Shown: in pieces, positions 27,355 to 43,786 of the stretch
Numbering within the stretch: the stretch's first letter is position 1
Layout of the letters: each line of letters opens with the position of its first letter
DNA from: Hyphomonas sp.
Lineage (GTDB): Bacteria; Pseudomonadota; Alphaproteobacteria; Caulobacterales; Hyphomonadaceae
Length of the DNA stretch: 64,000 nucleotides
Direction of reading: 5' to 3'
Assembly (NCBI GenBank): GCA_013791775.1
Contig: VMTE01000036.1
Span: 248,001-312,000 of the forward strand
Program-made: the position numbers and the translations under genes
The notes under the pieces: model-generated
The model's database searches: none
Told to the model about the DNA's origin: nothing
What the model saw: only the letters and a program-made list of their open reading frames with translations

Positions 27355-27513
27355 CCCCTCTCCCCGCTCGCGGGGAGAGGGGCAGGGGTGAGGGGGCTGC
27401 GCTTCAAGCGCCGTGCTTCGGTGAGGGGTTGCGCCCCCTCATCCCCTCGCTCAGGCAATCGTATACGATTGCCTGTCTTCGCGAGCCCTTCTCCCCAAAA
27501 GGGAGAAGGGGCT
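27355..27513. repeat. Composite palindromic element A with CGTATACG palindrome
   Basis: In order: a perfect 12-bp hairpin (27355-27366 with 27371-27382), a G-rich then C-rich spacer (AGGGGTGAGGGGGC and GCGCCCCCTCATCCCC), a perfect 24-bp palindrome at 27452-27475 centred on CGTATACG and enclosed by CTCGC/GCGAG, and a terminal hairpin CCCTTCTCCC (27486-27495) with GGGAGAAGGG (27501-27510). It fills the gap before glyS. A close relative is at 43.6 kb. Confidence 0.8.
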
Positions 27514-27589
27514 TTGAATGGCAAGCCTTGACCCCGCCGCGCGCGCCTCTATGCCGTGACCCACGCGAAATCCTTGCCTGTGGGGCCCC

Positions 27590-29842
27590 ATGGCTGAACT
27601 CCTGCTCGAACTCTTTTCCGAGGAAATCCCCGCGCGCATGCAGGCGAAGGCGGAAGCCGACCTGCTGGCCGCGCTGACCCAGCGCCTGAAGGATGCCGGC
27701 CTCGGCTGGCAGACCGCCTTTGCCGTGTCCGGCCCGCGCCGCCTCACCGCCGTGATCGAAGGGCTCGACGCCCGCTCGGCCGATGTGCGCGAAGAGAAGA
27801 AGGGCCCGAAAGTCGGCGCGCCGGAGCAGGCGATTGCCGGCTTCCTGCGCGGGGCGGGACTGGATTCGATTGATCAGGCCACGATCATCTCCGACGCAAA
27901 GAAGGGCGACTTCTATGTCGCCTACATCTCCAGGCCGGGGCGCGATGCGGCGGACGTGATCGCCGAGGCCGTGCCCGAGATCATCAAGACCTTCCACTGG
28001 CCGAAATCCATGCGCACGGCAGACGGCGACCTGCGCTGGGTGCGCCCGCTGCAGCGCATCACCTGCGTGCTCGACGGCGCGGTTGTGCCGTTTGAGGTGG
28101 GCGGAATCCCGAGCGGCAATGTCACCGAAGGCCACCGCGTTCACGGGCGTGGTCCGTACACGGTCAAAGGCTGGAAGGACTACAAGAAGCAACTCGAAGG
28201 CAAGGGTCATGTGATCCTGTCACGGGAAGACCGGCGGGCGCGCATCCTTGAGGGCATCGCCGGCGTGTGCGGCAAGGCGGGGCTCGAGCTCGTGCCGGAC
28301 GAAGGCCTGCTGGAAGAAGTGACCGGGCTCGCCGAATGGCCGGTGGTCGTGTTCGGCGAGATGGAGCCCTCCTTCCTCGACCTGCCACCGGAAGTGATCA
28401 AGCTGTCGATGCGCACGCACCAGAAGTATTTCGCGGTGAAACGTCCGGGTACGGAAAGCCTCGCGCCGAACTTCATCGTGGTGGCGAACATCACAGCGAG
28501 TGATGGCGGCGTGAAGATCGCCGAGGGCAATGCGCGGGTTCTGTCGGCGCGCCTCTCGGATGCCCGCTTCTTCTGGGAGAAGGACAAGGCCACGCCGCTC
28601 GAAGTGATGGGCGAAAAGCTGAAGACTATCGCGTTCAAGGAAGAACTGGGCTCGCTGGGCGACAAGGTCGAACGCGTCGCGGCGCTGGCGCGGGAACTGG
28701 CGAAGCATGTTGGTGCGGAGCCTGATCTGGCGGAGCGCGCGGCGCGACTCGCGAAAGCGGACCTCGTCTCCGAAATGGTTGGCGAATTCCCGGAACTGCA
28801 GGGCGTGATGGGCCGGTACTATGCGCTGGCGGCGCAAAGTCCCTCACCTCCCACGCCTGACGGCGCGGGCCCCTCCTCTCCCGCAAGCGGGAGAGGGGTT
28901 GGCGCGCCTTCTGACCCCTCTCCCTCCGGGAGAGGAGGGGCCCATCGCGCAGCGATGGGAGGTGAGGGCCTTTTGGCAGGTCTTCCGGATACGGACATCC
29001 GCAAGATCGCCGACGCGATTCGCGACCATTACAAGCCGCAGGGGCCGAATGATGCCGTGCCCTCGGAGCCGGTGGCGGTGGCGGCCGCGCTGGCGGACAA
29101 GCTGGATACTTTGTTGGGATTTTGGCTGATCGATGAAAAGCCGACGGGATCGAAGGATCCGTTTGCGCTTCGTCGCGCGGCGCTCGGTGTCGTCCGCATT
29201 GAGTTGGAGAACTCTCTGCGAATGAACTGGCGCTACTATTTCGAGTGGTACTTCGCCAATGTCGTGAAGCGAGAATACCTCACTGTCGCGTCGTTGATCG
29301 ATAACCTGCAGAGCTTCCTTGAAGATCGGCTGTCTGTCGCTCTCCGAGACTCCGGAAAGCGCCATGACTTGGTTTCTGCAGCGCTGGAAGCAAATGCAGC
29401 TAACGAAGGAGGTGTGATACATTTCCTAGTTGTGAAGCGCGTCGAGGCGCTCGGTGCTTTCCTCGAAACGGAAGACGGCGCAACGCTGCTCGCCGGCTAC
29501 AAGCGCGCGGCGAATATCCTGAAGGCGGAAGAAAAGAAGGGCGCGCTGCCGGAGAACCTGTCGGTCGATGGCGCGCTGGTCGCCCAGGGGCCGGCGGTGG
29601 AGCAGGCACTCTGGGCCGCGCTGCAGGCCTGTGCCAAGGCGCTCGAAGCGCCGCTCAAGACGGAGAACTTCGCCGGCGCAATGACCGTTCTGTCCGGCCT
29701 GCGCGCCCCGGTGGATGCCTTCTTCGACGGCGTCATGGTTAACGACACCGACCCGGCAATCCGCGCCAACCGGCTGGCGCTGCTGGTGGCGGTGCGGGAC
29801 GCGCTGCATCAAGTCGCCGATTTCTCGAAGATCGAGGGGTAG
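27590..29842 (+). CDS. glyS: Glycyl-tRNA synthetase beta subunit, with an in-frame palindromic insert
   Basis: A 750-residue tRNA-binding subunit of glycyl-tRNA synthetase, longer than the usual roughly 690. The N terminus (ELLLELFSEEIPARMQ) and LRWVRPLQRITCVLDG are family signatures; KPTGSKDPFALRRAALGVVR is the conserved HD-like segment, and the C-terminal anticodon-binding region ends near VRDALHQVADFSKIEG. Residues about 418-460 are Pro/Ser/Gly-rich and encoded by a palindromic repeat that keeps the frame. After the insert normal sequence resumes with the family's IADAIRDHYKPQGP segment. A stretch at about 29,100-29,450 is less GC-rich. The insert looks tolerated, since the frame is open throughout. 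Confidence 0.95.
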   Translation: MAELLLELFSEEIPARMQAKAEADLLAALTQRLKDAGLGWQTAFAVSGPRRLTAVIEGLDARSADVREEKKGPKVGAPEQAIAGFLRGAGLDSIDQATIISDAKKGDFYVAYISRPGRDAADVIAEAVPEIIKTFHWPKSMRTADGDLRWVRPLQRITCVLDGAVVPFEVGGIPSGNVTEGHRVHGRGPYTVKGWKDYKKQLEGKGHVILSREDRRARILEGIAGVCGKAGLELVPDEGLLEEVTGLAEWPVVVFGEMEPSFLDLPPEVIKLSMRTHQKYFAVKRPGTESLAPNFIVVANITASDGGVKIAEGNARVLSARLSDARFFWEKDKATPLEVMGEKLKTIAFKEELGSLGDKVERVAALARELAKHVGAEPDLAERAARLAKADLVSEMVGEFPELQGVMGRYYALAAQSPSPPTPDGAGPSSPASGRGVGAPSDPSPSGRGGAHRAAMGGEGLLAGLPDTDIRKIADAIRDHYKPQGPNDAVPSEPVAVAAALADKLDTLLGFWLIDEKPTGSKDPFALRRAALGVVRIELENSLRMNWRYYFEWYFANVVKREYLTVASLIDNLQSFLEDRLSVALRDSGKRHDLVSAALEANAANEGGVIHFLVVKRVEALGAFLETEDGATLLAGYKRAANILKAEEKKGALPENLSVDGALVAQGPAVEQALWAALQACAKALEAPLKTENFAGAMTVLSGLRAPVDAFFDGVMVNDTDPAIRANRLALLVAVRDALHQVADFSKIEG
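28841..28968. repeat. 128-bp palindromic repeat inserted in frame in glyS
   Basis: Outer arms CCCTCACCTCCCA (28841-28853) and TGGGAGGTGAGGG (28956-28968) pair perfectly. Inner 17-bp arms 28867-28883 and 28927-28943 (GGGCCCCTCCTCTCCCG and its complement) also pair perfectly. Between outer and inner arms lie small hairpins CGCC-tga-GGCG and ATCGC-gca-GCGAT. The layout resembles the intergenic elements at 27.4, 43.6 and 60.0 kb. Confidence 0.85.
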
Positions 29843-29870
29843 GGCGCGGCTGATCGCCAAGCAGACAGAC

Positions 29871-29956
29871 GCTCATCCTTGAGCGAAGTCGAAGGATGGG
29901 CCAAGCCGAGCCGTCCCTCGCCCCGGCTCTATCCTTCGACTTCGCTCAGGATGAGC
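29871..29956. repeat. Inverted repeat, CATCCTTCGACTTCGCTCAGGATG type
   Basis: The left arm 29871-29897 (GCTCATCCTtGAGCGAAGTC then GAAGGAT) is complementary to 29931-29956 apart from one extra T. The rest of the 343-base glyS-ppdK gap holds further short hairpins, for example GTTCCG (29995-30000) with CGGAAC (30004-30009), and ACAACGTTGT near 30057. I see no gene there. Confidence 0.75.
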
Positions 29957-30185
29957 CGTTCGAGAGGTCGCCCCCGGGAAGGCGGGGGCAGGTTGTTCCG
30001 CTTCGGAACGCCAGACGCCCCAGAAGCGGCAATACCTTCCCCGGGAGGCGAATTAACAACGTTGTCAGTCGCCCCGGAGACGAAACGCGCACTTCTCATT
30101 CCGGGTGCGATGCAGCATAGGACTTGCAAACAATCAGGCCGACGAGAATTGAACGGCACACAAAGTAGACGGAAGGCGATTTCGC

Positions 30186-32903
<2,718 letters not shown>

Positions 32904-43595: not shown

Positions 43596-43786
43596 TCCCC
43601 TCTTCCTTGGGAGAGGCTCGCGCGGGAAATCGTATACGATTTCTCGTCCACGCGAGGGGGTGAGGGGGACTGAGCTATCCGATTGGCGGAGCGTTTGAGG
43701 GAATGGTGCGCCCCCTCATCCCCGCGCTCGGACAATCGTATACGATTGCCCGTCCTCGCGCGCCCTTCTCCCGCAGGAGAAGGGGC
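43596..43786. repeat. Composite palindromic element B with two CGTATACG palindromes
   Basis: In order: hairpin CCTCTTCC/GGGAGAGG near 43599-43616; a module CTCGCG (43617-43622) to CGCGAG (43651-43656) enclosing the perfect 18-bp palindrome 43626-43643; spacer GGGGGTGAGGGGG; its complement-like partner CCCCCTCATCCCC; a second palindrome with perfect 16-bp core 43733-43748; and the hairpin CCCTTCTCC (43763-43771) with GGAGAAGGG (43776-43784). The two palindrome units face each other. It ends ten bases before the transglycosylase stop. Confidence 0.8.

What the first reader, a model, noticed from the sequence alone, without database searches (positions are those of the whole stretch)
28841..28968. 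Palindromic repeat inserted in frame inside glyS
Seen directly: 13-bp outer arms and 17-bp inner arms, both perfectly self-complementary, lie inside the coding sequence of the glycyl-tRNA synthetase beta subunit and encode about 43 Pro/Ser/Gly/Arg-rich residues, while conserved glyS sequence continues on both sides in the same frame. The layout matches intergenic elements elsewhere in the window. Known parallel: Rickettsia palindromic elements inside protein genes. Inference: an otherwise intergenic repeat spread into an essential gene and was kept as a tolerated surface loop, or is cut out of the RNA.
Basis: partly seen in the sequence, partly recalled or inferred. Interest (0 to 1): 0.82.

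Follow-up and report, generated by a model that had tools for sequence, protein, structure and literature searches.

The report
Swappable hairpin slot inside glycyl-tRNA synthetase
A hairpin-forming DNA repeat sits in frame inside the gene for one subunit of glycyl-tRNA synthetase, at a spot where many related bacteria carry different repeats of this type; it is likely mobile and is predicted to be translated into a floppy loop that the enzyme probably tolerates.

Summary
Confirmed: a 128-bp nested palindrome (28841-28968) lies in frame in glyS (27590-29842). It folds far better than shuffles (z -9.5), and other copies of its family lie elsewhere in the genome. Of 35 congeners read, 34 have a short, empty loop.

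The larger finding is that this loop is a recurrent slot. In an even sample of the order, 26 of 138 matched genomes are split there by a long insert; outside the order 0 of 115; the partner gene glyQ, 0 of 140. Forty-nine inserts form 27 to 37 DNA clusters; 46 of 49 are hairpin-prone against 4 of 49 control segments. The 26 genes keep open frames. In ten of ten genomes tested, the insert or part of it recurs elsewhere. Sister genomes with 83-91% identical genes hold different or part-replaced palindromes between the same flanks.

AlphaFold makes the insert a disordered loop between two helices. Best reading: likely mobile MITE-like palindromes, translated and tolerated, repeatedly replaced at one permissive loop. 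It works like Rickettsia palindromic elements but is not shown to be one. RNA excision is not supported.

The parts
27590..29842 (+). glyS, glycyl-tRNA synthetase beta subunit, 750 aa, open through the insert
28841..28968 (+). palindromic repeat core, 128 bp, read in frame
   Evidence: other copies in own genome
28841..28853 (+). outer arm, left (13 bp perfect; 18 nt at 94% from 28836)
28956..28968 (+). outer arm, right (13 bp perfect; to 28973 at 94%)
28867..28883 (+). inner arm, left (17 bp, perfect)
28927..28943 (+). inner arm, right (17 bp, perfect)
28889..28899 (+). innermost arm, left (11 bp)
28914..28924 (+). innermost arm, right (11 bp)
28823..29005 (+). whole variable loop S1 (residues 412-472; 9 residues in empty relatives), the recurrent slot
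28970..29005 (+). tail LLAGLPDTDIRK; similar tails follow palindromes of several families in related insert-type alleles and are missing from empty alleles

Best explanation
The 128-bp hairpin at 28841-28968 is a copy of a dispersed palindromic repeat that lies in frame in glyS, where it is predicted to be translated as a disordered loop that the enzyme likely tolerates, and the same loop of the gene holds different palindromic repeats in many relatives. Shown: the hairpin; its other copies in the genome; the empty loop in 34 of 35 congeners read; the recurrence at one loop in all five families of the order that were sampled; different palindromes between the same flanks in sister genomes; kept reading frames. 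Predicted: the loop is unstructured and lies between helices 406-414 and 467-479. Inferred: the elements move as non-autonomous MITE-like units by an enzyme not identified; they land at many places but survive inside GlyS almost only where a loop tolerates about 20 to 80 extra residues; once a loop is lengthened, new palindromes insert into or replace the old one, and the insert-type loop can also travel between lineages by recombination. The window's own insert probably arrived that way, because its 12-codon tail matches insert-type proteins such as P0007 and P0011 and not its closest empty relatives. There is no sign of a benefit from the peptide itself.
For: Own genome: three further matches over nearly the whole query (74-82% identity) and six shorter ones (42-80 nt) at five places with E below 1e-6. 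Order sample: 26 of 138 matched genomes split at S1, each loop then read; class sample outside the order: 0 of 115; GlyQ in the order: 0 of 140 with an insert, one genome having the gene over two contigs. 46 of 49 inserts have fold z of -2 or below against 4 of 49 same-length segments upstream in the same genes; 27/34/37 single-linkage DNA clusters at 50/70/90 bits. The insert or a part of it (37 nt or more) recurs in its own genome in 10 of 10 genomes tested (8, 2); a 109-nt element with sharp ends recurs outside glyS in G092. Gene tree without the variable columns: at least 26 empty/insert changes among 120 genomes, a sample enriched for inserts. Swaps between like flanks: G117/G153 89.8%, G244/G161 91.2%, G385/G043 86.2%, G385/G171 83.4% DNA identity outside the variable sites; G401 filled against G354 empty at 89.6%. 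Disordered loop: pLDDT below 50 at 420-457, model mean 88.9. Little amino-acid constraint: in each of nine pairs, insert third codon positions differ at most twice as often as second positions.
Against: No proteomics or RNA data, so translation and tolerance are inferred. No transposase was identified and target-site duplications were not established. Two of 49 long loops (G015, G116) are not palindromes and G323 is weak (-1.6, -2.4); G074 is borderline (-1.8), so the slot also takes other sequence. Insert DNA is less diverged than third codon positions beside it in eight of nine pairs (synonymous rate 0.13 against 2.78 for G050/G092), while stem pairs break more often than they are kept through a change in ten of ten pairs; simple neutral decay of one old insert does not explain that. 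Recurrence at one loop could mean target preference or selection and not tolerance alone. Only one control gene (GlyQ) was tested, and ThiC of G071 shows that other genes can be hosts.
Confidence: 0.72

Rival explanations
1. The element is removed from the mRNA (or the protein), as an intron or intein would be, so GlyS is normal.
For: The hairpin is very stable as RNA. G171 carries a long insert that looks nested, which removal would make harmless.
Against: The 26 insert-bearing genes in the order sample keep an open frame (714 aa or more, no stops), which excision would not require. No Rfam family reaches its gathering score. No intein domain in the Pfam scan.
Confidence: 0.03
2. The slot is a true insertion hot spot: a feature of the DNA at this place draws palindromic elements of many families, and tolerance only keeps what lands there.
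For: One position takes most long inserts of the gene (about 86 of 115 aligned proteins, a list biased towards the query), in all five families of the order sampled; filling in G401 beside empty sisters; inserts less diverged than the sites beside them in eight of nine pairs.
Against: The flanking protein sequence is also conserved in the 115 genomes outside the order that have no insert. A further GlyS site (S3) and ThiC of G071 also take palindromes, which fits tolerance.
Confidence: 0.2
3. GlyRS beta is under pressure to vary its surface, for instance to escape a phage or competitor factor that binds it; palindromes at S1 and S3 and the foreign-looking cassette at S2 are the raw material.
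For: S2 is hypervariable and of lower G+C than the 5' part of the gene in 77 of 77 genomes with S2 over 90 nt; [quoted passage not shown] swaps between sister genomes.
Against: No attacker is known to me; 112 of 138 matched genomes in the order have no long S1 insert (at least two of them, G070 and G089, hold shorter ones); S2 forms well-predicted helices in the window's protein, unlike S1.
Confidence: 0.1
4. The hairpin is kept for an RNA or DNA role (translation pausing, mRNA stability, methylation or supercoiling) in glyS.
For: Insert DNA is less diverged than neighbouring third positions in eight of nine pairs; insert synonymous rates are below those of the flanks in 15 of 15 pairs, which are not independent.
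Against: In ten of ten pairs more stem pairs were broken than kept through a change (for example 14 broken, 7 kept by a one-sided change, 1 compensated in G254/G161); most relatives do without; unrelated hairpins replace each other.
Confidence: 0.08

Closest known systems
Rickettsia palindromic elements (RPE; Ogata et al., described in passages of PMC2229807 and PMC10969869; the 2002 original was not held)
   Same: 105-146 bp hairpins, present between genes and in frame inside conserved protein genes, alphaproteobacterial, apparently tolerated.
   Different: Other order, GC-rich, different host gene. Here one loop of one gene is filled by 27 or more sequence clusters in different genomes and differs between sisters; sequence kinship to RPE was not tested.
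REP / REPIN repeats with RAYT transposases (passages of PMC3733652)
   Same: Palindromic, near gene 3' ends, sometimes inside genes; that paper reports REPs in unnamed tRNA synthetases of X. oryzae, E. litoralis and S. alaskensis.
   Different: No RAYT (PF01797) in 15 of 15 genomes here; no GTAG or CGTC tag at the ends; longer elements. Which synthetase that paper means was not seen.
CIR, methyltransferase-associated intergenic repeats of Caulobacter and Brucella (passages of PMC2229807)
   Same: About 110-bp hairpin repeats of alphaproteobacteria.
   Different: CIR carry GANTC, are described as not found inside genes and closed in all six frames; this insert has no GANTC and its core is open in four of six frames.
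Bacterial MITEs with in-frame fusions (ERIC, Correia; passages of PMC2229807, PMC10969869)
   Same: Small non-autonomous repeats with terminal inverted repeats that can fuse in frame.
   Different: No parent insertion sequence or target duplication shown here; recurrent replacement at one site of an essential enzyme is not in the passages read.

Membership tests
Rickettsia palindromic elements (RPE) | palindromic element of about 105-146 bp inserted in frame in a conserved protein gene | tested here: met
   128-bp core in glyS, open frame, domains on both sides
Rickettsia palindromic elements (RPE) | further copies between genes in the same genome | tested here: met
   nine own loci (eight places) with further copies were examined: five have a spanning ORF over 120 aa, four of those five were scanned and none has a recognised domain on both sides; the short one of L008 was not scanned. 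No gene calls were available
Rickettsia palindromic elements (RPE) | sequence membership in an RPE family | not tested
   no RPE sequences were fetched; the 2002 original is not held
Rickettsia palindromic elements (RPE) | insert is translated | not testable with these tools
   no proteome; open frame in the 26 insert genes is indirect support
REP / REPIN | RAYT tyrosine transposase in the genome | tested here: not met
   PF01797: 0 of 15 genomes (12 with and 3 without a long insert), control rings in Caulobacter vibrioides
REP / REPIN | GTAG or CGTC tag at one end | tested here: not met
   core ends are CCCTCACC and GGTGAGGG
CIR | GANTC motif in the repeat | tested here: not met
   absent from the window's insert; present in 13 of 49 inserts
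MITE | terminal inverted repeats | tested here: met
   13-bp perfect, 18-nt 94% arms
MITE | target-site duplication | tested here: inconclusive
   flanks of own copies compared by eye; no consistent duplication seen, empty sites of those copies not fetched
Self-splicing intron | match to an intron RNA family | tested here: not met
   no family over its gathering score in 27500-30200
Intein | splicing domain in the insert | tested here: not met
   only PF02092 and PF05746 found

The most novel reading that the evidence does not exclude
The bacterial GlyRS beta subunit of this order is a diversifying protein: one surface loop (S1) acts as a swap-in slot for whatever palindromic mobile element the genome carries, beside a hypervariable foreign-looking cassette (S2) and a third slot (S3), so that an essential housekeeping enzyme is being remodelled by mobile DNA, possibly to escape a factor that targets it.
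Probability: 0.12. Interest if true: 0.9.

Novelty: new variant of a known kind. Interest (0 to 1): 0.72.

Why it matters
Protein-coding palindromes are known best from Rickettsia, where they are spread over many genes. Here one loop of an essential enzyme appears to have been filled, emptied and refilled by many unrelated palindromes across an order, giving replicate natural experiments on how selfish DNA becomes protein, how insertion sites are chosen, and how much an aminoacyl-tRNA synthetase can be remodelled.

Tried and rejected
RNA excision or intein: rejected, see rivals. RAYT-mobilised REPs: rejected. CIR: rejected (no GANTC in the window's insert, open frames). A conserved added protein domain: rejected, because the inserts do not share a sequence and differences are not concentrated at third positions. 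Selection for the RNA hairpin: not supported by pair counts, although the low divergence of several inserts stays unexplained. Assembly error: unlikely, since independent genomes, some single-contig (for example G230, G244, G276), show it. Gene conversion from genomic copies as the cause of low insert divergence: not settled; in G050 the other copies match the slot element only over about 55-60 nt at 84-85%, less well than the glyS insert of G092 does. Promoter and terminator scan of 27400-30300 found nothing at the insert.

Literature: ten searches, the cap. Seven concerned palindromes, two GlyS variation (24, 83), one GlyRS structure (65). Judged by titles and abstract starts of the listed rows, several lists being capped, none was on palindromes at this GlyS site. 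Most subscription papers, the 2002 RPE and the CIR original and all supplements were out of reach, and PMC3733652 mentions REPs in unnamed tRNA synthetases. Papers were seen as passages only.

Full report
What is there. The window holds glyQ, glyS and, downstream, a 905-aa ORF that I read as pyruvate phosphate dikinase (name from recall, no call). It folds at -110 kcal/mol against a shuffle mean of -69 (z -9.5, 0 of 200). The Pfam GlyRS beta domain and solved GlyRS beta chains align on both sides.

It is a dispersed repeat. A search of the own genome (51 contigs, 3.93 Mb) with 146 bases around it finds three other near full-length matches (74-82% identity) and six shorter ones of 42-80 nt at five places with E below 1e-6, besides weaker short ones. 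Five copies read begin within about 15 bases of a stop-like triplet, judged by eye. Nine loci with other copies (eight places) were examined: five have an ORF over 120 aa spanning the element; four of those five were scanned (the short one of L008 was not) and none has a recognised domain on both sides. In the own genome glyS is thus the only copy seen inside a recognised protein.

Empty site. One search found glyS in 36 congeners. G026 was cut off before the site and was not read; of the other 35, 34 have a short loop between YY and ADAI. The exception is G015, whose insert is not palindromic and whose genome is 9% contaminated. Proteins P0002 and P0004, 91% and 89% identical to the window's protein, are empty too.

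A recurrent slot. Other families of the order carry long inserts at the same place. To avoid bias I searched even samples with a 133-aa query from an empty protein: a long insert splits the match in two. In the order, 138 of 140 genomes matched and 26 were split at the site, the window's own included: 5, 3, 10, 6 and 2 genomes in families f1 to f5; each of the 26 loops was then read. The other 112 were unsplit; at least two of them (G070, G089) hold shorter inserts. In the class, 117 of 134 matched; of the 115 outside the order none was split there, the largest excess length being about 15 residues. The same test with GlyQ gave no insert in 140 genomes; one genome had the gene over two contigs. 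GlyQ is the only control gene and is shorter than GlyS.

The inserts are palindromes of many kinds. Loops longer than 22 residues, flanking residues included, were read in 49 of 120 genomes of an enriched set. Of the 49, 46 fold with z of -2 or below (median -4.0) against 4 of 49 same-length segments 120 codons upstream (median -0.1). G015, G116 and G323 do not reach -2; G323 did, and G074 did not. All 26 members of the even sample are in the set, and 25 of those 26 are hairpin-prone. By DNA the 49 form 27, 34 or 37 clusters at 50, 70 or 90 bits. Ten inserts, joined as one query, were searched in their ten genomes: in eight the insert or part of it is seen elsewhere in the listed rows, which were capped, and in the remaining two (G047, G290) in a second search, over as little as 37 nt in G047. 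For one family the element has sharp ends (109 nt) and a further copy in G092 outside glyS.

Turnover. On a GlyS tree built without the three variable regions, the empty/filled state changes at least 26 times among 120 genomes (200 shuffles of the labels: mean 37.8, minimum 31). Sister genomes show swaps: G117 and G153 (89.8% DNA identity outside the variable sites) hold different palindromes between like flanks; so do G244 and G161 (91.2%) and G385 and G043 (86.2%). G171 shares the left part of the G385 palindrome and looks like a newer palindrome inside the remains of an older one. G401 is filled while G354, G132 and G366 are empty. Palindromes of several families in f1 and f4 are followed by a similar tail (GL..GL...DIR.IADAI), also in the window, which its empty relatives lack. 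I infer that the lengthened loop is inherited or exchanged as a unit while its palindrome is replaced. The inserts read in f2, f3 and f5, and that of G055 in f4, lack that tail, which points to separate events.

How it probably works. In the AlphaFold2 model (mean pLDDT 88.9, 61 sequences) only 138-144 and 420-457 fall below 50; the insert is a loop between helices 406-414 and 467-479. In one search it falls between residues 417 and 421 of chain 7yse_C, which I take from recall to be the E. coli protein; its HD domain is 341-540 in passages of PMC8464048, the domain that contacts the tRNA acceptor stem (passages of PMC9908026). The 26 filled genes are open (714 aa or more, no stops). Four of six frames of the core are stop-free, two or three of six in five other own copies, so in-frame survivors need not be rare. 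Within orthologous inserts, third codon positions differ at most twice as often as second positions in each of nine pairs, and stem pairs break more often than they are kept through a change in each of ten pairs. That fits a translated but unconstrained loop.

What does not fit. In eight of nine pairs the insert has diverged less than third codon positions right beside it; the exception is G254/G161. Its synonymous rate is lower than that of the flanks in 15 of 15 pairs, by a factor of three or more in 10 of 15, and hardly at all in G254/G161 (0.45 against 0.50); the pairs share genomes and are not independent. Either the inserts are younger than the genes, arriving again and again, or the DNA is held by something that the pair counts do not show. 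This is open.

Compared with what is known. The nearest kind is the Rickettsia palindromic element. The passages I read (PMC2229807, PMC10969869, PMC3733652) describe in-frame RPEs in many genes, and REPs in unnamed tRNA synthetases of three species. REPs proper are excluded by the absence of RAYTs (0 of 15), CIR by the lack of GANTC. I found no account of one site refilled by many families, within the ten searches listed under Tried and rejected.

Noticed in passing
window 29198-29314 (protein about 537-575): Second variable site S2: a cassette of 17-162 aa in 194 GlyS proteins (not freed of duplicates); 178 segments of 35 aa or more fall into 81 blastp clusters, 54 of them singletons, and some clusters span families; its G+C is lower than that of the 5' part of the gene in 77 of 77 genomes with S2 over 90 nt (0.517 against 0.646 on average). 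By eye, P0014/P0015 and P0008/P0010 differ mainly here.
   Followed up: partly
GlyS proteins P0079, P0084, P0085, P0109, P0112; G254 genome C20:38165-38279 (locus L229): Third site S3 (after AEEKKG): long inserts in several proteins; in G254 it is a palindrome of another family than the one in its S1, so that gene carries two.
   Followed up: partly
L237:1090-3108 (G071): A palindrome lies in frame in ThiC, between the ThiC-associated domain (29-100) and the radical SAM domain (184-631), so glyS is not the only host gene.
   Followed up: partly
loci L027 (G015) and L252 (G116): Two long S1 loops are not palindromes (z about 0, G+C 0.51-0.52), so the slot also takes other sequence.
   Followed up: no
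window 29880-29948; 27446-27485, 43617-43656, 43723-43762: Other palindromic repeat families: an 18-bp perfect inverted repeat just after the glyS stop, and three copies of a unit around AATCGTATACGATT.
   Followed up: no
GlyS inserts of G079, G046, G092, G050 and others: Insert DNA is less diverged than neighbouring third codon positions in eight of nine pairs although neither amino acids nor stems look constrained.
   Followed up: partly
loci of G038 and G054: Loops with four residues more than the usual empty state, beside filled sisters G079 and G092: possible scars of a lost insert.
   Followed up: no
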